A stretch of 64,000 nt of DNA from positions 248,001-312,000 of the forward strand of contig BQUP01000001.1 in the NCBI GenBank assembly GCA_022835595.1. The letters run 5' to 3'. Below the pieces are notes generated by a model. It did no database searches and was not told the DNA's origin. It saw only the letters and a program-made list of their open reading frames with translations. Positions 312 to 43,009 of the stretch are shown in pieces. The first letter of the stretch is position 1; every line of letters starts with the position of its first letter. The position numbers and the translations under genes are program-made. The stretch comes from Cystobasidium ongulense. Taxonomy: Eukaryota; Basidiomycota; Cystobasidiomycetes; Cystobasidiales; Cystobasidiaceae.

Positions 312-1623
312 CTACTCGACTTTCTCCTGTACAGATGCAGCCGGTATTCTAGACAGATCCGCGACGAGAGATCCAGCTGCTCTTTCTGTGAACCACTTTT
401 CGCTTAATAATTGATCTTTCTTAGTATAGAGAATTCTGCACGCGAGCCATGGATGACAATCAGTATCACTTGTACGAGTCTCGCCACAAGCTTTTGAGTC
501 AACACTCACTTGTACACTGTCCGCAAGGTACTGTCACTGATGCCAACTACAGCACCTATCTCCTTGACAGTCTTTGGCACGCCAAACGCGTGACATGTGA
601 AGTACACACACGCAGCAGCGACTGACAAGGGTGATCTTCCAGCAAGGATGCCAAACTCGTCTATGTTCCTGACAACCTCCGTAGTAGCTGACTGTACAGC
701 TGGCGGTAGACCGAGATGGTTACCGAAGCGTGAAACGATGCCAGCCGCAGACGAAGCGTGAGAGGAAGTTGACGAAGCGGCAGTGCTCGTACCAAAAGCT
801 TGCGAAAGTCTGCTGAACGCTTGTCCAATCTCCTTTTTTGGGACTCCTGATAGAGATACTATCTCTTTAAAGGTTCTGCCGACCTTTTGGTCTCTGCAAG
901 CGATGAAGATGCACGCAGCTACGATTGCAGCCTGCTGTTTGCTCGTTGTAGTTCCCGCTTTCGAGCGAAAGACATGTTCCTCATCCTGACGTTTGAACAG
1001 CTGTTTTGCCGAATCCGAGACTGTTCGAGGTAGAGATATTCGGTCGCACATCTCGCTGATCTCCGCGTATGCATTGCTCAGCGTTTGCTCGCCCGATTTT
1101 TTGGCAGCCGCTTGAGAAGCTCGTTGAAGCGACTTGGCAACACCGGTATTATTGTCACGGAAGGATATGACGGACGAGAGCTGGTCGGCCCCTGATAGGA
1201 GGGGATCTCCTGGGCCACCGACACGAGATGGGTCATCGCCTTCTGAATCGGCAAAGGTACGCCCTGCATGACCATAGGCAGGCGAGTCAGTATTGTCTTT
1301 GCTGTAAGAAGAGCATATCAGCTAATAGTGGAGCCCACATTCGCTCCTCGTATCGACGATCTTGTCGCCTAGGACCTGCAAATGGTGTTTGCACAAAAAA
1401 GAGGCTTCCAAGGTCAACCTCGCTACCTTGTTTGCACATAGAGAACGAAAAAAGCTCAACGCACCAGACCACAGTTTCCGCATATGAGATCACCACTGGC
1501 GAATTGCTCAATGAGATAGCCTTGCTCTCTGCAGTCTGGACAGTTGACGCGGACGTTGAGATCAGGTCTGAAGTCGTCGCTGACTGCGCTGGCGGCGGGT
1601 GCTCTGCTGGGGTAGGCCTGCAT
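312..1623 (-). CDS. SUA7: Transcription initiation factor IIB (TFIIB)
   Basis: TFIIB bridges TBP on the promoter to RNA polymerase II and helps choose the start site in the nucleus. Four exons read on the minus strand: 1623-1465, 1375-1339, 1263-510 and 435-312, giving 357 residues, close to the usual fungal length. The N-terminus holds the zinc ribbon, with Cys pairs in VNCPDCRE and ICGNCGLVLGDK, followed by the B-reader-type segment DTRSEWRTFADSEGDDPSR. Two cyclin folds follow; the second contains VCIYFTCH-like helices (AAACVYFTCHAFGVPKTVKE) and ISDSTLRTVYK at the last intron. The start is the ATG at 1623, the first in frame before the ribbon. The gene is divergent from YTH1, about 500 bases away. 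The acceptor of exon 4 was chosen because it joins TVYK to ILYTKKDQLL, as in other TFIIBs. Confidence 0.95.
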
Positions 1624-2125
1624 GGCGCTCGAGGAGAAGACGAGAGGGTGTGTAGGTATTCGAATGTATACTAAAGGCTACAGGGAGGTATTCAAACGGG
1701 TCTATGAGGCGAGTCTGGCGGGCTTTTGGAATAGACAGCGGGCTGTTTCCAGACCTTGGACTCGCCGGAGGTAAATGAGCGTAGATGTGGGACGTGTATG
1801 CCGTCTTCTGAGACTCGGGCAGCGCGTAGTGTGCTCGTTCTGCAGGCAGTTGTTGAGATGGTGGTTGGTGTTGGAGCAAGACGAGTGAGGTTGCTTGTTC
1901 AGCTATTTTGTGCGGCTGGCGAGCGTGGCGAGCTTGATTATAATTGCAAACTCGCAAGGCTGACGCAGCAGGGGACCTCGGTGGCCATCTAGAGAAGCTT
2001 ACTCAGCTCAAAGACAACTTGTACAGCTGTGAAAGCTTCGACGAGCAGCTTCCACTTTGACTCCAAGACGGCTTCCTCGATCAACCTCTTGCTTCACCTT
2101 GGAGCAACTCGCAACGAAGCACAGC
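1624..2125. promoter_or_regulatory. Shared upstream region of TFIIB and YTH1
   Basis: About 500 bases separate the two divergent start codons. I see open frames on both strands but nothing that reads like a protein. The position implies promoters and 5' leaders for both genes; no specific site is recognised. Confidence 0.5.
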
Positions 2126-3365
2126 ATGAAGGACGGCGTCAAGCAGGCAAGCATGGCCAAGATAGCGTCCACATCTGCACTGCCGTATCGGAAACCCTCA
2201 AAGCCGCTTGCCGCTGCGTCCGACGTGATCACCTTTCCAAACTTCAAGCATACCGAACTGCTGCTCGAGTCGCGGATAAAGACAGAGATCCAGCCAGCAC
2301 TCAAGCTCGACGCAGACAACCAGATATGCAAAGCCTTCTTATCCCCGAGCGGCTGTCCTCGTGGAGCTGCTTGTCCTCTCCGCCATACCACGCCCTCGAC
2401 GGCAAACTACGTAGTGATACCACAACCTACGACGGTCCAAGGCAGGACAGTCTGCAAGCATTGGCTTCGTGGACTCTGCAAGAAGGGTGCAGACTGCGAG
2501 TTCTTGCACGAATACAATCTACGCAAGATGCCGGAATGCTACTTTTTTACAAAGCATGGCTTCTGCTCGTCCGGCGATGAATGCATGTACCTACATATCA
2601 CTCCACATCAAAGAAGGCCAGAATGCCGCAGCTATACTGCGGGCTTTTGTAGGGCAGGTAAGAGTGTATCATTTGATGCCTAATTATGACTATCTCTGAC
2701 TTGGATCATTACTGCCGTCGTTGTAGGCCCGTCATGTCCCAATAAGCATATCCGGAAAGTACCTTGCCCCCTCTACCTCGTCGGCTTTTGCCCTTCGGGG
2801 CTTGACTGCTCCTTCGCACAGTGAGCTTACTCAATTGAAGACTCATCGATATGATACTGACAGCTTTTCCGGCATCGCAGTCCACCATTCCTCCTTCCAG
2901 ACATTGAACGTATAGCATCCCATTCCTTCGAGCGCGACAGCGACAATCCACTATATCGACATGCAGCCAGAGAAAGAGATCGTGGTCACAATAATGGTAG
3001 ACCGATAGCAAGCTACATGGATGGGAATATGGTCGATGGAGATGGCATGATGGGAGACCGGCGGGCGGGTAACAAGAATGCAAGAGGGATGGTCTGTTTC
3101 AAGGTACGCAATACTGCTTGTAATACAGCAAACATCTACTTCGGTGCTAACTGACCCTGTTATTATCGATGTCCTCTCATACAATACTCGGTGCTACAGT
3201 GCGGGCAAGAAGGTCATCTAGCGAACCAATGCCCTAATCCTTCAGTGCCAGGAAATGTAAGTCGTGTTATTTGTTTTCGACTCTCACGGTATATCAAACG
3301 CATACTGACTAATACTACAGCGCGGAGGCGTGGAACGCGGTCCAGGAGGCAGACCTATGGCTTGA
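2126..3365 (+). CDS. YTH1: mRNA 3'-end-processing CCCH zinc-finger protein, CPSF30/YTH1
   Basis: YTH1 (CPSF30) is a subunit of the cleavage and polyadenylation factor and binds pre-mRNA near the poly(A) signal. Five CCCH fingers are visible across two introns: [59 protein letters not shown], the split finger beginning [12 protein letters not shown], and [24 protein letters not shown] zinc knuckle ([14 protein letters not shown]) near the C-terminus is split by the intron at about 3104-3200. The knuckle is present in animal and many fungal CPSF30 proteins but absent from budding yeast Yth1. The start at 2126 is the first real ATG in frame; the frame upstream is open from 2057 only through a TTG. 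Five exons give roughly 315 residues, and the stop is TGA at 3363-3365. Confidence 0.93.
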
Positions 3366-11018: not shown

Positions 11019-13689
11019 ATGATGGGACGGCATATCCTGTTGTCAATCATCCTGTCGCTATCCGTGCTCTTGCCAGCTGCCAGAGCTCAAGGAACGGGAA
11101 CAGTCTGGTCAACTCTTATTGGAACAGATTCATCCCGTGCTGATTTCTATCCTGAAGTAAGCAGCCATTCTTTTGGAGCCTAGATAATATTTAGAGAGCA
11201 AACGCTAACGATGAGCCCCCGCATAGGGCTTCACTGGATTTGTCGACCCTGCCAATCCCGAGCAAGAGTGCAAAAAGTGGTGGTGGGTATCCATTTCATT
11301 ATGCAGGGCACAGATAAGATTCCCTGGATTGTGCTGATGTGTTTCGATTATCCACGTGCTTCATCGGGCAGCCTGTCTATCGCGACATGTACAATGTTCC
11401 TTTACTATACAGATGATACAGGGACCTGTGTAAGTGGAACTACCCACATCGCATCAGAGCGTCTCAATTATCCTGCTTGGCTCACTCCTTTCGCACGGAC
11501 TTGGTCTACGATTGCCGTATGTCGTTGGCAATATTGCAGTATATTAAGACCGGTTCACCCACCAACGTGATCTATCAAATCAACGATCCCGAATTGCCGT
11601 ATGCCCTCGTGATACGCGATCTTCCATGTGACGTGTGAGCTCTATCCTTCCCGCCTGTCTCATTTGCCGTTTAAAATTGTGCAGATTTGGATAAAGCAGT
11701 TCCCGCTGACACAAAGCACTTTTTACTTTTGCCCTTCAGATCGTTGTCACTCGTCAGGCCGTTTCTCGAGGGCACGGATGTAGAACCGCAATGCATCGAA
11801 ACGAGAGGCAATACGGACGATGGAGAGGATGAAGTTCCTCAAGGAGGTCAGTTTGGGCGCTTTTTAATCCCTTTCACAGACTTTTCACAGACAGCAGCTG
11901 ATACGCTTGTGACCAAATAGCTTTGAATGAGCCATGCTTACCGGAGAACATTTGTCTCAATGGAAATGTATGCGACGTTCTCGCGGACGGCTCTAACATC
12001 TGCAAATCACCCTTGAATGGTGACTGCCGCGATATTTCGGACTGTAGCTATACCACAGCCAATCCCGAATTGGAATGTACATTACAAGGAGGTACCAATG
12101 ACAACCGAATCTGTGCTATAGTTCCTCGGGGAGGTGGGTTTAAGGCCTAACTTTTCCAATGCTTAGCGCATACCAGCTGATGCCACGTTGTGTCCCACAG
12201 ATTTGAACGAGCTATGCTTAACGGACAACACTTGTCGCAATGGAAACATTTGCGATGTCAACGCGGACGGCTCTACAATCTGCAAAGTCCCCTTGAGTGG
12301 CGTGTGTCTCAATGTCTCCGACTGTAGCTCTACCATAGCAGATCCGGACTTGGAGTGTACAATGCAAGGCAATAGCAACAGCGGAGTCTGTGCTATAGTC
12401 CCTCGGGGAGGTTAGTCTGGAATTCTTAAACTCCTCAAGCTCTTTTCTCACCTCAGCTGATGCCACCATGGCGACGACAGATCTAAATGAGCAGTGCTTT
12501 GCGGATAACACCTGTTTCAATGGAAACGTATGCGATACCTTTGAAGATGGCTCTACGATCTGTAAAGTACGCTTACGCGGCGTATGCAGCGACGTCTCGG
12601 ACTGTAGCTCCACCATAGGAAATCCAGAATTTTTGGAGTGTGTACCACAAGCGGGCACCGGTACTGGAATCTGTGATAGAGTAATTCGAGGAGGTTAGTT
12701 TGAGACCCACTCCTACATGCTTCTGAGACAGCAGCTAAATGCGATTGTTGTGACAGGATGGAATCAGCCTTGCTTTGCGGATAACACCTGTTCCAATGGC
12801 AACATATGTGAAGTCTTCCAGGACGGCACTACGATATGCAAATCGCCCTTGTATGGCCTCTGTTTTGACATCTCCGACTGTAGCTCTACCTTAGCAGGTC
12901 CAGACTTGGAGTGTAATAAAGAAGGAGGCAGCGACTCTGGGTACTGTGCTGTGATTCCTCGGGGTGGTGAGTCTGGGATCCAACATCTTCACAGCTCTTC
13001 TCACACTATCTAATACCACCTTGTGACGTCAGCTTTGAACGAGCCGTGCTTACTGGACAGCACCTGTTCCGATGGAAATGTATGCGACGTCTTGACCTAT
13101 GGCCCACCTATCTGCAAGTCATCCTTGAATGGCTTCTGTAGCGATCTCTCGGACTGCAGCAATACCATAGCAGATCCAGACCTGGCATGTACGCTACTAG
13201 GAGGTACCGATGGCAATCGAGTCTGCGCAATTGTAGCTGCTGCGCCGCCTGGTGCATCACAAGTTGCGCAAAGGAGAAAGAGGAACACGATCAAGGCTAG
13301 GATGGATGCGATGTTGGAAAACCAATGCCCAAAAAGATTTATCGCTTGTCCTATCCAATCAGGCCAGAACTTTGAATGTGTCAACCCTCTGGAAGAAGTG
13401 AGTCTGAACCTCCTCTGAGGCCTGCTATTTACAGAGAACTGACATGAGGGCTTGGTGTTTAGCTTGCACACTGTGGTACTTGCGGAAATGACTGTCAAGA
13501 AGTACCCGGAGTACACAAGACTGGAGTTTCGGTGAGCACTTATCATCAGCTGCGCTGGAATAGCAGAGTCGCAACTAACACTAAATGTACCCCAAGTGTT
13601 CACAAGGAGAATGTCTGATCTACCGGTGTAGGAAGGGATTCAAACGAGTGGGAAACCAATGCATCGCTAAGAGCAGGAGAGCACGTTAA
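11019..13689 (+). CDS. Secreted cysteine-rich PriA-like protein with five tandem 8-Cys domains
   Basis: Twelve exons give 608 residues. A signal peptide (MMGRHILLSIILSLSVLLPA) is followed by a conserved N-terminal module containing CLSIATCTMFLYYTDD. Five repeats of about 70 residues come next, each in its own exon: 11921-12133, 12201-12410, 12481-12693, 12757-12966 and the start of 13033-13397. Each has eight Cys in the pattern PC..(N/S)xC..GN(V/I)C..ICK..C..SDCS..C..C. Every repeat exon is entered from a phase 1 intron. The last repeat runs into an AQRRKR dibasic site, then a C-terminal domain with CPKRFIACPIQSGQNFECVN, HCGTCGNDC and CLIYRCRKGFKR. That layout resembles the PriA family of basidiomycete cell-surface proteins. 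Function is unknown; a cell-wall or extracellular role is inferred. The paralogue lies 1.5 kb downstream. Confidence 0.85.
11921..13250 (+). repeat. Array of five tandem domain-encoding exons
   Basis: Five homologous exons of 210-213 bases, the last one extended, are separated by introns of about 63-70 bases. All splice junctions flanking the repeats split a codon after its first base, so each unit can be gained or lost without shifting the frame. Repeats begin (L/W)N(E/Q)(P/L/Q)C and end near VPRGG. The repeats have diverged in sequence, so the amplification is not very recent. Confidence 0.9.
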
Positions 13690-15164: not shown

Positions 15165-16735
15165 ATGAAGAGCTATCTCATTTCATTGGGTCTCACCCTG
15201 GCTACGGCAACGAGCAGTCTCCTTGTTGCTGCTCAGGGCACTCAGTGGTCGACAATTGACGGTACCGATTCTTTCGGTGCAGACGTTTATCCCGAGGTGA
15301 GTGGATGGGTTGAAGGTATATCCTGTATCACCAGAGATAATGCATCGCAGATGGACACATCACCCATTTTGCCAATGCTCATCTATCGTTGCATCACATA
15401 CCACAGGGTTTCACCGGCTCAGTAGATTCTACCAACACCGAGCAGGAGTGCAAAAGTTGGTGGTAAGCTAGTTTATCTACATTCTTTGCCGTTTGAAGCC
15501 CGCGCAAGAACTATACTGATCCCCTGTCTCATGCTACAGCTTGTCAGTCGCGACCTGCACAATGTTCCTGTACTACACAGGCAACTATGGAATCTGTGTA
15601 AGAGGAAGACAGACCTGTTGCTGATTAGCTAGCTTACTGACCGACCTTTGCATGCAGTACATCAAAACAGGCAATCCCTCAAATGTCGAATACCAATACG
15701 GTGGTCCCAGTGCGCCTTATAATCTAGTTATTCGAGATATGGACTGCCCCACGTAAGTCTATCCTCCTTTCATCGTACGAACCGCGACACTTGCCTGCTT
15801 CTATATATCGGTGTCCTGACGTTCTCTGCACCACCGACCCTGACCATATACATACCGCTCTGCAACATTGCTTTCCCCGATTCAGAGCACTGGCCCTTAC
15901 TGGCGCATACCTGGGTGGAGCCGAAGGTCCTGCATGCACTGCAACCGTAGGAAACAATGCTGAAGGAACAGATGAAGTACCTCAAGGTTGTAAGTAAATT
16001 CTTCAGCACATCAGCGCTCTGCCATGCCAAAGTCTTGCACGATCATTAGGCTAAGAGTTCTCATATTACCCCTGCTAGCCCTCAACGCTGAATGTTTCGA
16101 CGATAATACCTGCCTGAACGGAAACGTTTGCGATACGGTACAAGGCAGTGTTAATGTTTGCAAAGCACCTCTGGGAGGCAATTGCCGCGAACTTCCCGAC
16201 TGCAGCAACAGCATCGCAGATCCGGATTTGGAGTGCACTTTGATGGGAGGAACCAATGATAATCGAATTTGTGCCATTGTTGCCGCTGTCGATCCCCCAG
16301 CACCAGGAGCGTCACAGCTAGCACAGGCCCAGAGGAAGAAGAGGAGCATGTTGAAGGCTCTCTCGTCAAGGAGCTTCGCCAACCAGTGCCCAAAGAAGAC
16401 GATCGCGTGCCCAACCTTGTCAGGCAACAACTTCGAATGCGTCAACCCGAAGGAGGAGGTGAGTCTGGGACTTTGGAGAGAACTTATCGAGGACTATGCT
16501 AAGTGAATCATGGTTATTCTCAGTTGGCGCATTGTGGAACTTGCGGCAACGACTGTCAACAACTTGAGGGCGTCCACAAGACCGGAGTCATGGTGAGGGC
16601 TTAAGCAAGCTTAACAGAAGTGAACTGCATTCTAATCCGATAGGGCTTTGCCTACAGTGCTCTTCCGGCGAATGCCAGATTTACCGATGCCGCAAAGGCT
16701 ACACATTGGCGAACAATACCTGCGTGCCTGTTTAG
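15165..16735 (+). CDS. Secreted cysteine-rich PriA-like protein, single-repeat paralogue
   Basis: Eight exons (15165-15296, 15407-15462, 15540-15597, 15658-15752, 15886-15989, 16079-16458, 16524-16592, 16658-16735) give 323 residues. The signal peptide is MKSYLISLGLTLATATSSLL. Exon lengths and phases of the first four exons match the neighbour at 11019-13689 (56, 58 and 95 bases for exons 2-4), showing descent from one gene. A single 8-Cys repeat (LNAECFDDNTCLNGNVCD onward) is followed by an AQRKKR dibasic site. The C-terminal PriA-like domain contains HCGTCGNDC and CQIYRCRKGYTL. The long leader rich in C and T before the ATG resembles that of a well-expressed fungal gene. The molecular role is unknown; cell-surface location is inferred from the signal peptide and family. 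Confidence 0.87.
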
Positions 16736-17176: not shown

Positions 17177-17689
17177 ATGGCGAGCTTATCTACATACAGA
17201 CAAGCTTGTAGTCGCTGACTTACCTTGGTCGTTCCTCCTCCAGTCGCTTTCAGTCAAGAGCATTCGATCCGTCATGCCCCTCCTCGACAGGGTGCTAGTT
17301 CAGCGCATGCAGCCTCAGCAGGTGCGGCTTGAAAGCTTTACCAGCCATTCTAGACACGATGTGCTGACGTTCTTGCTGCTGCTCTGCCTCTCGCTGCTCT
17401 CGCCGCCCGACGCTTCCACTTCATCCTGCTTTTTTTGCTCTTCGGACCTTTCTAGAAAACGGCATCAGGCATCTTCTTGCCCTCGTCAGAACACAAGGCT
17501 CTTCCAGAGGCACAGGTCGTCGCTGTAGGACCAGGTGCAAAGGACAAGGATGGCAAGGTCCTCGAAATGAGCGTCAAGGCCGGCGACAAGGTCCTCCTCC
17601 CCAGCTTTGGCGGGCAGTCGATCAAGGTCGGCGAAGACGAGTACACCTTGTTCAGAGATGCTGAGATCCTAGCCAAGCTTAGCGAGTAA
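17177..17689 (+). CDS. HSP10: 10 kDa mitochondrial chaperonin (HSP10)
   Basis: HSP10 caps the HSP60 ring and helps fold imported proteins in the mitochondrial matrix. Three exons (17177-17207, 17254-17321, 17456-17689) give 110 residues, the usual size. The conserved start of the fold (MPLLDRVLVQR) is followed by KTASGIFLPS, the mobile-loop region. Further on are AQVVAVGPGAKD, GDKVLLPSFGG and the end LFRDAEILAKLSE. The ATG at 17177 gives MASLSTYRQAF before KSIRSVMPLLDR, matching the short presequence of yeast Hsp10. Translation could instead begin at the Met before PLLDR. The first intron, 46 bases from GTAGTC to CTTTCAG, is the weakest part of the model. Confidence 0.93.
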
Positions 17690-33333: not shown

Positions 33334-35912
33334 ATGAGCAGCTCTCGTGCTCTTCAACGTATGGGCGGTGCGGGCTTCGGGGGCATGGGCCAGTTTGGAG
33401 GAGCCTTTTTGCTCATCAATGCGCTGTCTGGCAAGATATACGAACTCATCAATGAAGCGAGCCAGGTGATCACAAAAGGCTACGAGACTGGCGGTGTACT
33501 AGGGTTGGCTCGCTCAGATGAGCTGAGAATACTTCTTAGAAGGTATTTATGGTTGCTTTCCTTGGTGTTTGCATATGAGAGGGTCAGATGGCTCTGGAGC
33601 TTTCTGAATGGCTTCAAAGCATTAACAAAGTGTATGCAATCGATTGTGTTCAGCATCACTATCTTCACTACAGCATATATTGAATAAGATGATTACTCTT
33701 CTCCCATTACAGACCTGTACATCGATGCTACCTTGAGAACTGGAGATCAAGCCTACGAATGCAAATGTTATACACTCAAATAAGCTCTTCCACAATGCTG
33801 ACTCGGAGGTCTGATGTACAGGGATTCTAGCTTACTGGGAGCATTCTAGCGGGTTCCGCAAGAAAAGTCGCGACTTCATCGTTGAGACAGGTGCAAAGAG
33901 CTCAAAGAGACGCGCCGTCCAGGCCATGCTTCACGGTGGCGGAGAGACCATGTCAGTCCTACCTTTCCCAGCGTTTCCCCTCTTGCACAAGGTGCCTCAA
34001 ACTATGGATGTTGCGCGCGCAGACCTTCTTTTCGGACTGCCGGCCCACCCCCTAAGTTTGGGTACAAGCCTGGCCATGTGGACCCTGTCCAAGCTCCAAG
34101 TGTGATACACCTCGTGTAGATGGGGCGAAACCGAGACAAAGAAGTCACGCAGTTAGTTAATTCTTCTTTCATTCCTCGTAGTTACTTGGACGCTCAGGTA
34201 TCAACGGATTCCGACATACAAACTCGAATTACTCCAAAAGACGGTAAGTACACGTGCAAACGACTATAGATCTCGCCTTTACTGAGTGCAGACTGAATTT
34301 CGCAGAAGCGGAGCAATGGTGTAAGGTCTCTCTTCATAAGCCTTCAAGGAGATGGCTTATCTGATATTGCTCATTGTCCTCAGTCATTAACGCAGGCACT
34401 GTCTTCAGATTGCGAAGAAGAATGCAAACAACCCCTCCAAATTGGATGACGGGTGCCGAATCTTCTCAAAATCCAGTTATTACGATTCGCTGCTACTCTC
34501 TCACTCGTAGGCCACTCTTCAAGCTTCTCAAAGAAGCCAAAGCTGTCTATGAGCGAACTCGCCCTCAGATGATCACAATCCGAGTGCTCGACGCTCGCGG
34601 TACTTGGCGCAGGATAGCTTACAAGGCGCGAAGACCTTTAGCGAACATCATCATGGAAGCGAGCGTACGCGACTCCCTGCTCGAAGATGCTCGAGAGTTT
34701 CTCAAATCTGAAGACTGGTATGCTGCTCGAGGCTTGCGCTGGAACCGGGGTTATCTCTTGCACGGCGCTCCAGGAACGGGCAAATCTTCAACTATACAAG
34801 CCCTTGCAAGTGAACTCAAGCTAGATGTGTATATAATCTCCATCAACTCCCCCATGATGAGCGACTCCATCCTAACATCAACAATGAGATCCATCCCTCC
34901 TAAAAGTATCGTCGTTATGGAAGATGTAGATGCTGTTTTCTCTACTCAAAAGAGAGAGCTGGCCAATGTTCCAGCTGCTCCAGGTAGAGGGCCAGTCATG
35001 GGCATGTATCCAGGCATGAGAATGGGGATGCAAGGCGGTGGTGGCGGCGGATCCATCAGCTTGAGCGCTGCGCTGAATGCCATCGATGGAATCGAATCCG
35101 CCGACGGTGGGCGTATCTTGATGATGTCTACGAACGTAGAGCTGTCAGAGCTCGATGCTGCTCTCACACGACCTGGCCGTGTCGATCTCTTCATCAACTA
35201 CAAGCGAGCTACTCGAGCCCAGGCTGAAGAACTATTCAATATATTCTATCGACCCGCACAGGCTGATGAATCGGAGTTGGAGGAAGAGCTTGTTGAACAA
35301 GATATTGACGCTCTCGAAGGGTTGGAAACGCCAGATATTCAGGAAAAACATTCCCCATCTTTGTTACCATCACTTGACTTCAAGTCTGTCGTGCAAAAAG
35401 CTACACGAAGCAAGCCGAACAGTCATCATCCTTTCGAATTACCATCTCATGTCACGCAGAGCAAAATTGCGGAATGGGCGCAATTGTGGGCTGCACAGCT
35501 TGAAGATGAACAGTTCACTATCGCAGAGCTGCAGGGCATGCTGTTGTTCTACAAGAAGGACCCAGAGACAGCTGTGAAGGAGATGTCTGGCTGGGTTGCC
35601 AAGGAACTCACCAAGAGGGAGGCCGAAGCTGAAAAGGAAAGGCTAAGACAGGAAGAAAAGAAAGTGCAAGCTGAGGCAGCTTCTTCTGCTCCTGCTCCTG
35701 CTCCTGCTGTCGTCATTGCAGGCTCAGCGCCGGTCAGTACGAGCAAGAAGGAGGGAAAGAAGGCCAGCAAGAAGGAAGATGAAAGGGAAGACGACAAAAA
35801 GGAGAAAGCAGAGGAAGCATCGCATCCCGTAGTGAAGCTGGGAAAAGTTCTCATTGACATTCAGGCCGAAGATTCCGCTTCTCTCTCGTCCGGGAGTGAC
35901 GCTCTTGAATAA
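33334..35912 (+). CDS. BCS1-type mitochondrial AAA ATPase
   Basis: Bcs1 proteins sit in the mitochondrial inner membrane; Bcs1 itself moves the folded Rieske protein across it for complex III assembly. The N-terminus (ATG at 33334) has a membrane-spanning segment in LWLLSLVFAYERVRWLWSFL. The BCS1 N-domain follows in small exons (AYEWILAYWEHSSGFRKK, DFIVETGAK, then WTLRYQRIPTYKLELL). The AAA module is clear: RGYLLHGAPGTGKSSTIQAL (Walker A), SIVVMEDVDAVF (Walker B), MSTNVELSELDAALTRPGRV (sensor 1 and arginine finger). An insert of Gly/Met-rich sequence (GMYPGMRMGMQGG) lies between Walker B and sensor 1. A long Lys/Glu/Ala-rich tail follows, so the protein is longer than yeast Bcs1. One intron appears to be GC-AG (33761-33821). 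Some middle exon borders are not resolved. It may be a BCS1 paralogue rather than the true orthologue. Confidence 0.85.
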
Positions 35913-40446: not shown

Positions 40447-43009
40447 TCACTCTCGTCTAACATTAACTCCCACGTCATCAAGCAACTCATCGTCGTCTTC
40501 GACAGTAAACAGGACCCGAGCAGTCTCATCTATCGAGTCCTTCTGCGTGCGCTTCTTTCCGGTCGCTGGTTGAGGATAGAACCGGTCATGCCCAGATGAT
40601 CCATCTCTACCTGGTGTCCTCAAGGGACTTCCAGGCCTGTTCTCGGCTGGAAAATGTCTTGCTCTTCTGCCGTGATAAGTCGACGAGCCGGGAGGTGGCG
40701 AAGTACCTATTTTACCAAGTCTATATCCAGATTCTGATCTAGCCATAATATGATGCTTATTTTCCGCGTGTTTCGGCATCCATCCCTTTCTTTGATGCCT
40801 TGTTCTCGCACGCCAGCGCAAAACACCATAGATAGCCAAAGTGACTGTAAGGACGATCAGAAAGAGTACGGCTGAACGCCGTGGTCCGTATACCAGCTCC
40901 CTCTCTTTATCTACAGGTTGTCCTTCTGATCCCGCCTTATCGACCGCATCAGAAGCAGCTTTGTCAACTGCAGCGGCTTGCTTTTCCAACTCGTCCTTAA
41001 CGCTTTCCAGAGTCTCGCCTTCGGGAGAGATCTTGCCAAGCACATTGCCATCGCCTTGACCTATTGTAGACGGAACCTTGGATCCGGCTCCTGCTGCATT
41101 GAGAGTGTCTATGCCCGTGAAACGAAGTAAGATGTCGTGCGCTTCGTATGGCTTATCAATTGGCACCTGCAAACACACATCGTCAGCATGCTTGTTTGGT
41201 AAATGCTAAATAAGTGTAAGTGACTCACCATATGGCCTGCCTCCTTTACAATCACCCATGTCAAATTCCTGTCCTCTCTCCAGCTTCCCGCCAATGTGCC
41301 ATTAACGAACCAGTCTTTAGCAGTAGCATTTTCTCCAAATCCAACTGCCCCGTTCCACCTCAGGTCATTGATCATACTCTCAATTCCGACCCAGTTGCAC
41401 ATCAAGTCAGCATCTCCAGCGAACAGTAAGATAGGCATAGTTTGCAACAATTCTGGAAGTAATTCAACCGAAGGAAAAGAGTGCGGACTCCACATTTGAT
41501 TGCCAACAGTATCGTTGCATTGTTGCCAAGGTGAAGATTTCCGCAATGCATGGAAAGAGTCGAGGACGTCTTCGCGCTGGAGGTAAGGCGTAGCATAGTC
41601 TAATCCAGGTGGGTATTCGCCGCAAAAGGCTGCAGGTCTGACATCATATTCGTTGATGCAGTATTTCTTAGTGTCGAAGCTGTGAGAGTGCAATGTCAAC
41701 AGGTGCCATAGCTCAGAGAATGACATGAGATGGCAGAGAAGGGCGGCATACGTAGTCTTTGCTGCTCTCATGACGCCTTCGATTAGCCGCTCGCAAGAGC
41801 CAACAAGTACATGATGTTGACCCGCAGTACTGTTCAGATCCATCTCGCAACCTTGAAGTGTAGTCATGACCTCTTTGACCTCTTGACTTTTTGTCTCCTT
41901 CAAGAATCCACGTTCTTTGGCATATTCGACGTAGCCTGGGTATTGATGAGTGGGCGAGAACCACCCATTGCCCATGAGAAGGCCTTTCAGTGTTTTAGGC
42001 ATAGCCTTATTTGAACTGATGGCCCTTGCGAGATAGGGTATCGTTGTACCAGCGTATGATTCGCCAGAGAGGTAGGTCTGAAGATGAGAGGCGGCATGTG
42101 CGCGATATTAGCAAGGCTCATCAATGAATGTACCTCTTTCCAGACTTGCATCGACACTTTCATACTCCGGGAATACCGAGTAGAAATTTGACAGGAAAGT
42201 CACAATCTGCTCCGCTGCCTGTCAAGTTAATTCAAGATTAGATTGTGCGCAAGTTAAACTGGCCCAGTTGTATTCCAGTCAGTCAATGCAAGACTCACCG
42301 GAGCCAACTCCCTGACAGCTTGTCCTTTATTGATGTAGCTATATCCAGTACCAGCAGGTTGGTCCACGAATAAGACGTTTGCATATTCGTTCCATTTGCC
42401 GGGATTGTCACGTAATGTCGCTTGCGAACCTTTGCCCTGTACGGTTATAGGTCCTACTTCAAGCAGGGCTCCATCGAAGGAGGAGCAGCCGGGGCCTAAA
42501 CCCGACAAACGATGCTCAGCTTTGCTGTGTCCCGTATAGAGGATCAAAACAGATTACACCTACCTCCATTGAACCAAATCACGAGTTTCTGTCGATCAGC
42601 TACGTGCTTCGCTTTAACGAGAAGCTGTGTAGACAAGGCCAGCTTTAGCTCTCGGGAAGCTTGTCGCATTGCATCAAAATGTGCTCACAAAGAACAAATG
42701 AGCATCCGAAACAGCGTCGTCTGGCATTACATCTCTTGATTGTGCGTCAAGAGCGTATGAGGCTGGAAGGTGACCAGAGTACATAGGTGCCAGGAGGAGA
42801 TTGGAGCTCGATGCGGCTGGCAGCGCTGGCACATAGAATGAAGCTGCTGATACAACATCATTGCCGCTATCGATCTTGCTGTTAGGCCTTGTGCTATTGG
42901 CATCGCGGTGCTGCTGAAGCTGGCTTCGCTCATGCTGTTCATGCTGTTCAAGAGCCTGGGCTCTTTGAATGAGCGAAACGAGACTTTCGGACCCTCGAAG
43001 GTGGGCCAT
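40447..43009 (-). CDS. KEX1: Serine carboxypeptidase KEX1
   Basis: Kex1 is a trans-Golgi membrane carboxypeptidase that trims basic residues left after Kex2 cleavage of secreted precursors. The S10 family core is clear: SFYVPALPAAS and MYSGHLPASYALD, then [35 protein letters not shown], the nucleophile in SGESYAG, GLLMGNGWFSPTHQYPGYVE, the Asp in LLFAGDADLMCNWVGIE and the His in WVIVKEAGHMV. A Golgi-type transmembrane helix (SAVLFLIVLTVTLAIYGVLR) and a long basic cytosolic tail end at 40447, as expected for KEX1 and not for vacuolar carboxypeptidase Y. The start is uncertain. The ATG at 43009 gives MAHLRGSESLVSLIQRAQAL, which is not a typical signal peptide, so an upstream exon may exist. Confidence 0.88.

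What the first reader, a model, noticed from the sequence alone, without database searches (positions are those of the whole stretch)
11019..13689. Exon-amplified eight-cysteine domain in a PriA-like secreted protein
Five homologous exons, each coding one 8-Cys module and each bounded by phase 1 introns, have been multiplied inside one gene, while the neighbour keeps one copy. The modules sit between a conserved N-terminal part and a PriA-like C-terminal domain. I know of no description of this module as a modular extracellular repeat. It could be a variable surface or matrix protein.
Basis: partly seen in the sequence, partly recalled or inferred. Interest (0 to 1): 0.75.

Follow-up and report, generated by a model that had tools for sequence, protein, structure and literature searches.

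The report
Repeated Dickkopf-like modules in fungal protein
A fungal-type secreted protein of a known adhesion and matrix family appears to have had one small disulfide-rich building block copied, intron included, until it carries five, while its neighbour gene still has one.

Summary
Gene A (11019-13689, 12 exons, 608 aa) encodes five 8-cysteine modules; neighbour gene B (15165-16735, 323 aa) encodes one. Four modules are their own exons with phase-1 introns on both sides. The fifth sits in a 365-nt composite exon, like the single module of B. Architecture: hydrophobic N-terminus, PAN-like region, modules, conserved RxKR, CPL1-like domain (PF21671). This places both in the PriA/CPL1/Cfl1 group, described in papers as basidiomycete adhesion and matrix proteins.

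(1) The 3' tails of modules 1-4 resemble the end of exon 5, not the tails of module 5 or of B, and the introns are alike. The copied unit was probably end of exon 5 + intron 5 + module, so copying itself made the symmetric exons. (2) The module has no Pfam or NCBIfam family above threshold. Its cysteine spacing and predicted hairpins suggest a Dickkopf/colipase-like fold, but no search score for this is significant.

Function is inferred from the family; splicing and strain variability are untested. New variant of a known kind.

The parts
11019..13689 (+). gene A, 12 exons, 608 aa, five 8-Cys modules
   Evidence: open spliced model with GT-AG introns
11227..11634 (+). exons 2-4 of gene A, which carry the PAN-like region (protein residues about 58-93)
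   Evidence: PAN_1 22.4 bits, cut-off 21.4, for the N-terminal segment alone; not listed in the whole-protein scan
11740..11846 (+). exon 5; its 3' end (GTTCCTCAAGGAG, VPQG) is the likely source of the module tails
11847..11920 (+). intron 5, phase 1, part of the copied unit
   Evidence: similar to introns 6-9
11921..12133 (+). exon 6, module 1, phase 1-1, 213 nt
12201..12410 (+). exon 7, module 2, phase 1-1, 210 nt
12481..12693 (+). exon 8, module 3, phase 1-1, 213 nt
12757..12966 (+). exon 9, module 4, phase 1-1, 210 nt
13033..13397 (+). exon 10, composite: module 5, RRKR linker, start of CPL1-like part; 5' phase 1, 3' phase 0
13272..13283 (+). RRKR, possible kexin-type cleavage site (residues 514-517)
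   Evidence: motif scan; cleavage is inferred
13371..13656 (+). CPL1-like domain PF21671 (residues 547-598, over exons 10-12)
   Evidence: 34.0 bits, cut-off 27.4
15165..16735 (+). gene B, tandem paralogue, 8 exons, 323 aa, one module
   Evidence: PF21671 37.1 bits
16079..16458 (+). exon 6 of gene B, composite: module, RKKR linker, start of CPL1-like part
16333..16344 (+). RKKR, possible kexin-type site of gene B (residues 234-237)

Best explanation
Genes A and B are tandem paralogues of the PriA/CPL1/Cfl1 group. Each encodes a secreted-type protein: hydrophobic N-terminus, PAN-like region, 8-Cys module(s), a conserved RxKR, then a CPL1-like domain. After the two genes parted, a unit of about 280 bp in gene A, made of the last bases of exon 5, intron 5 and the module, was duplicated in tandem until there were five modules. 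Each copy brought the donor and acceptor ends of intron 5 with it, so each extra module became a symmetric 1-1 exon adding about 70 residues in frame. Each module probably folds as a Dickkopf/colipase-like pair of disulfide-bonded hairpins (C1-C3, C2-C4, C5-C7, C6-C8). The likely role is a wall-associated or matrix protein in which the modules lengthen the protein and multiply weak binding sites; kexin-type cleavage could separate the PAN-module part from the CPL1-like part. Shown: gene models, repeats, domain calls, similarity of introns and tails. Inferred: the order of events, fold, disulfide pairing, secretion, cleavage and function. My odds for the single steps: family about 0.9, copied unit about 0.8, fold about 0.55, matrix or adhesion role about 0.5.
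For: Architecture: PF21671 above cut-off in both; PAN_1 (A) and PAN_2 (B) just above cut-off for N-terminal segments alone; RxKR at the same place in both. Coding: no in-frame stop in 5 of 5 modules of A against 1-7 in the other two frames, and mismatches by codon position 194, 171, 278 over 691 codon comparisons; dN 0.22-0.41 and dS 0.54-1.19 in the 10 within-A pairs. Timing: dS could not be computed (saturated) in 5 of 5 A-to-B module pairs and in both flanking regions. Unit: among 66 pairs from the 12 of 18 introns compared, z>3 in 8 of the 10 pairs of introns 5-9 of A and in 3 of the other 56. The 13-nt tails of modules 1-4 match the end of exon 5 at 11, 10, 9, 9 positions; the tails of module 5 and of B's module match at 5 and 6; with 12 nt of intron added all four score 18 of 25 and 0 of 3485 unrelated GT sites reach 18. 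Fold: Cys intervals 6,6,10,8,6,11-12,11-12 against 6,6,10,10,6,6,5 for eight of the ten Cys of Dkk4 CRD1 (residue numbers in passages of PMC6078440); strands 16-19, 25-29, 50-56, 62-68 and a helical turn near 38-41 in the model fall in the same order and, for the first three elements, at matching offsets to those of Dkk4. Foldseek ranks 1 and 2 are a chain of a DCC-Draxin complex and Dkk-2 (2jtk). Role: Cfl1 is called a cell-wall adhesion protein that is also released into matrix (passages of PMC4047104), and its homologues a family specific to Basidiomycota (passage of PMC3380952).
Against: No transcripts. The fold link is not significant: Foldseek E 0.12 and 0.6, TM 0.28-0.34, rmsd 8.2 and 10.7 A, 0 of 149 matches at E 0.001 or less, and ranks 3-6 are MSP1 C-terminal and EGF-like domains, so EGF-like scaffolds compete. 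Dickkopf_N reaches E 0.15 at best, in 2 of 6 modules, tied in number with DUF7107 among 11 sub-threshold families, and stays far below its cut-off for two typed consensuses. In the PDB profile search seven CPSF subunit 4 zinc-finger chains (best E 0.0026) rank above Dkk-2 (E 1.7); I take these as cysteine-spacing coincidence. The model is of middling confidence (75.5; the five models 75.5, 74.9, 62.5, 57.1, 56.9), a second model on exon 10 is poor (53.0), and the two halves of the module are not alike by profile (18.6%, 9 columns). The tail match alone is modest: 8 of 3485 unrelated GT sites reach 9 of 13, one reaches 11, and the four tails are not independent. Gene conversion within A could also keep modules alike and make the amplification look young. 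Module trees are weakly supported (32-77). No EGF or amyloid region as told for Cfl1 was tested.
Confidence: 0.55

Rival explanations
1. Shield or host-facing secreted protein: the array coats the hypha and binds host or competitor molecules, as the repetitive U. maydis protein Rsp3 is said to do.
For: Repetitive, Cys-rich, secreted-type; Rsp3 is cited as blocking mannose-binding maize antifungal proteins (reference title in passages of PMC10098057). Net charge of modules is -5 to -7, compatible with a binding surface.
Against: Organism and life style unknown; no sequence comparison with Rsp3; the CPL1-like context is shared with non-pathogenic functions such as filamentation and flocculation.
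Confidence: 0.2
2. Splice-regulated array: exons 6-9 are skipped or chosen so that one gene makes proteins with 1 to 5 modules.
For: Exons 6-9 are symmetric and multiples of three, so any subset keeps the frame.
Against: Introns are short (63-74 nt); from general knowledge (recalled) such introns in fungi are recognised as units and skipping is rare. No evidence of regulation was found.
Confidence: 0.15
3. The symmetric module exon is ancestral and gene B (and module 5) lost its 3' intron, rather than gene A gaining symmetric exons by copying.
For: Intron loss is common (recalled); two genes do not polarise the change firmly.
Against: Tails of modules 1-4 resemble exon 5's end, and tails of module 5 and B do not (5 and 6 of 13) and are like each other (AIVAA).
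Confidence: 0.15
4. The module is an unrelated small knottin or EGF-like scaffold, not Dickkopf/colipase-like.
For: No significant match; Foldseek ranks 3-6 are MSP1 and EGF-like domains, rank 8 is J-atracotoxin (28 columns, probability 0.66); Gamma-thionin and EB also appear below threshold.
Against: Four of seven Cys intervals equal those of Dkk4 CRD1 and secondary structure follows.
Confidence: 0.4
5. The array is a decaying or non-coding repeat.
For: No transcripts at hand.
Against: 5 of 5 modules open with all Cys kept, dN below dS in 10 of 10 pairs, canonical splice sites.
Confidence: 0.03

Closest known systems
PriA/CPL1/Cfl1 group (Pfam PF21671 CPL1-like; IPR038955, PTHR35192 according to passages of PMC12864254)
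   Same: C-terminal CPL1-like domain above cut-off, Cys-rich, secreted-type
   Different: PAN-like region and 1 or 5 8-Cys modules before it; no such array turned up in my ten paper searches, which reach only one open-licence library and show listings
Dickkopf CRD1 and colipase-like folds (PF04706; Dkk4 CRD1 from passages of PMC6078440)
   Same: Four of seven Cys intervals identical; two hairpins with a helical turn between in the model
   Different: 8 not 10 Cys, longer second finger, no significant sequence or fold score
Phase 1-1 extracellular modules of animals (recalled)
   Same: Small disulfide-rich domain in a symmetric exon, repeated in tandem
   Different: The symmetric exon seems to be made by the duplication inside one gene
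Rsp3 of Ustilago maydis (passages of PMC10098057 only)
   Same: Repetitive secreted fungal protein
   Different: Not compared by sequence

Membership tests
PriA/CPL1 proteins | CPL1-like domain PF21671 above cut-off | tested here: met
   34.0 and 37.1 bits against 27.4
PriA/CPL1 proteins | secretion signal | tested here: inconclusive
   hydrophobic N-terminus in both by hydropathy only
PriA/CPL1 proteins | basidiomycete source | not testable with these tools
   record unnamed, no genome held
Cfl1-type adhesin | EGF motif and amyloid-prone region (told in a passage of PMC9786196) | not tested
   only a sub-threshold cEGF match in B was listed
Cfl1-type adhesin | adhesion, flocculation or matrix signalling | not testable with these tools
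   needs experiment
PAN domain | Pfam PAN profile above cut-off | tested here: inconclusive
   above for segments alone: PAN_1 22.4 (21.4) in A, PAN_1 21.7 (21.4) and PAN_2 22.9 (21.1) in B; whole proteins: none in A, below cut-off in B
Dickkopf_N / colipase-like | PF04706 above cut-off | tested here: not met
   best E 0.15; 12.5 bits against 25
Dickkopf_N / colipase-like | ten Cys, five disulfides | tested here: not met
   8 Cys in 6 of 6 modules
Dickkopf_N / colipase-like | two-finger fold | tested here: inconclusive
   hairpins in a pLDDT 75.5 model; Foldseek not significant
Phase 1-1 module exon | module bounded by phase-1 introns on both sides | tested here: met
   4 of 5 modules of A; not module 5 nor that of B

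The most novel reading that the evidence does not exclude
The module is an unnamed Dickkopf/colipase-like two-finger domain of fungi that became a true modular exon repeat independently of animals: tandem copying of an exon end, an intron and part of a composite exon made symmetric exons de novo, giving a matrix protein whose module number can change freely in frame and may vary between strains.
Probability: 0.3. Interest if true: 0.6.

Novelty: new variant of a known kind. Interest (0 to 1): 0.42.

Why it matters
If right, it shows a simple route by which a non-modular gene acquires symmetric, freely addable module exons: copying across an exon end, a phase-1 intron and part of the next exon. 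That route would not need exon shuffling between genes, which is usually told for animal matrix proteins (recalled). It would also put a Dickkopf/colipase-like scaffold into a fungal adhesion and matrix family whose binding mechanism is open, and give a testable handle: module number against adhesion or matrix behaviour.

Tried and rejected
Relatives of the module were sought in 84,980 prokaryote species genomes and in IMG/VR: 28 and 30 pattern matches, none confirmed. PADLOC and NCBIfam gave nothing for 6 modules. A phmmer search of two joined modules against the PDB gave 0 hits. A CPSF subunit 4 resemblance was rejected as cysteine-spacing coincidence: the window's own CCCH zinc-finger gene at 2033-2683 gave the weak tblastn hits at E 0.15-0.51. 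An internal duplication of the module into two halves was tested by profile and not found. The viral fold library gave nothing at E 0.001 or less. The bacterial promoter and terminator scan is not informative for this DNA. PMC3606632 proved irrelevant: its 'pri a' is a table footnote. U. maydis 'Cpl1' is cerato-platanin-like by passages of PMC10098057, a name clash.

Full report
Gene models. I built two spliced models by hand from the sequence and checked them by script. Gene A runs 11019-13689 with 12 exons and gives 608 aa; gene B runs 15165-16735 with 8 exons and gives 323 aa. All 18 introns are GT-AG. One search placed one exon end of gene A two bases short; one search is the corrected model. 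The neighbour is in the same orientation. Over exons 1-5 and the last three exons the intron positions and phases of A and B agree: phases 0, 2, 0, 2, 1 before the modules and 0, 0 after them.

The repeats. Gene A has five modules and gene B one; all 8 cysteines are invariant in 6 of 6. Modules 1-4 are separate exons of 213, 210, 213 and 210 nt with phase-1 introns on both sides. Module 5 shares a 365-nt exon with the linker and the start of the C-terminal domain, as the module of B does.

Are they coding? Each of the five modules is open in frame while the other two frames have 1-7 stops, and third codon positions differ most (278 mismatches against 194 and 171 in 691 codon comparisons). dN is 0.22-0.41 and dS 0.54-1.19 over the 10 within-A pairs. 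Branch-site-like CTRAY motifs lie 23-24 nt before the acceptor in four of five introns; intron 8 has CTAAA at -22. No transcript evidence exists here.

How the array arose. Introns 5-9 of A resemble one another: z>3 against 200 shuffles in 8 of 10 pairs, compared with 3 of the 56 other pairs (12 of the 18 introns were compared). The last 13 nt of modules 1-4 resemble the end of exon 5 (11, 10, 9 and 9 of 13), whereas the equivalent tails of module 5 and of gene B match it at 5 and 6. In protein terms modules 1-4 end VPRG or IRG-like, exon 5 ends VPQG, and module 5 and B continue AIVAA. The tail match alone is modest, since 8 of 3485 unrelated GT sites reach 9 or more and one reaches 11. With 12 nt of intron added, all four copies score 18 of 25 and none of 3485 unrelated sites does; gene B's own exon 5 boundary scores 16, which 3 of 3485 unrelated sites also reach. 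The simplest history is that a unit of end of exon 5, intron 5 and module was duplicated in tandem inside gene A. Each added module then has intron 5's donor behind it and intron 5's acceptor before it, so it is a phase 1-1 exon by construction. dS between A and B modules could not be computed in 5 of 5 pairs (saturated), nor in the two flanking regions, so the amplification looks younger than the split of A and B, unless gene conversion has kept A's modules alike. Trees of modules or units are weakly supported (32-77), so I claim no order of duplication.

What the protein is. PF21671 (CPL1-like) is above cut-off in both proteins. The N-terminal segments alone score just above cut-off for PAN profiles, but in the whole-protein scan none was listed for A and those of B were below cut-off. 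Both have a hydrophobic N-terminus and no other hydrophobic stretch by my threshold, and a conserved RxKR between modules and CPL1-like part; A has further dibasic pairs at 534, 594 and 605. By passages in papers, PF21671 proteins form the PriA/CPL1 group (PMC12864254), Cfl1 of Cryptococcus is a wall-associated adhesion protein also released into matrix (PMC4047104; PMC8654403; PMC6162697), and its homologues were found only in Basidiomycota (PMC3380952). The matrix role of gene A is inference from this family.

What the module is. No Pfam or NCBIfam family reaches threshold. Dickkopf_N is the best or joint best weak match, in 2 of 6 modules and for both typed consensuses, at E 0.15-0.58. The spacing between cysteines is 6,6,10,8,6,11-12,11-12. 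In Dkk4 CRD1 the paper gives disulfides 41-53, 47-63, 66-80, 73-85 and 79-90 (passages of PMC6078440); without the 66-80 pair the intervals are 6,6,10,10,6,6,5, so four of seven are the same. The AlphaFold model of module 1 (six-row alignment, pLDDT 75.5) has strands at 16-19, 25-29, 50-56 and 62-68 and a helical turn near 38-41; Dkk4 has strands at 52-54, 62-64, 83-86 and 89-92 and a helical tendency at 76-78, which correspond with offsets of 36 (first finger) and 38 (turn); the second finger is longer here. Foldseek ranks a chain of a DCC-Draxin complex first and Dkk-2 second. That this chain is Draxin, and that Draxin is Dickkopf-like, is recalled. Neither is significant (E 0.12 and 0.6, rmsd 8.2 and 10.7 A), and MSP1 and EGF-like domains follow at ranks 3-6. 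The PDB profile search ranks CPSF subunit 4 above Dkk-2. I hold the Dickkopf/colipase-like reading at about 0.55.

Membership. The proteins are members of the PF21671 group by the one defining feature I could test. The module is not filed as Dickkopf_N: its profile cut-off and ten-cysteine layout were tested and not met. It may still be built like one.

Verdict. A real, coding-looking, intron-spanning tandem amplification in a known family, with a plausible and checkable origin for its symmetric exons and an open fold question. Interest 0.42; new variant of a known kind.

Noticed in passing
window 2033-2683 (+): CCCH zinc-finger gene (PF00642; reads like CPSF30/Yth1), which gave spurious weak matches to the modules.
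   Followed up: partly
window 17456-17689 (+): Chaperonin 10 (PF00166) exon just downstream of gene B.
   Followed up: no
window 506-1321 (-): TFIIB repeats (PF00382).
   Followed up: no
window 34365-35912 (+): BCS1-like AAA ATPase (PF08740, PF00004, PF25426).
   Followed up: no
window 41109-42107 (-): Serine carboxypeptidase (PF00450); by my reading Kex1-like, of interest beside proteins with RxKR sites, but no link was tested.
   Followed up: no
window 13532-13596: Intron 11 of gene A resembles intron 5 of gene B at z 3.6, one of three unexplained intron pairs outside the array; probably chance.
   Followed up: no
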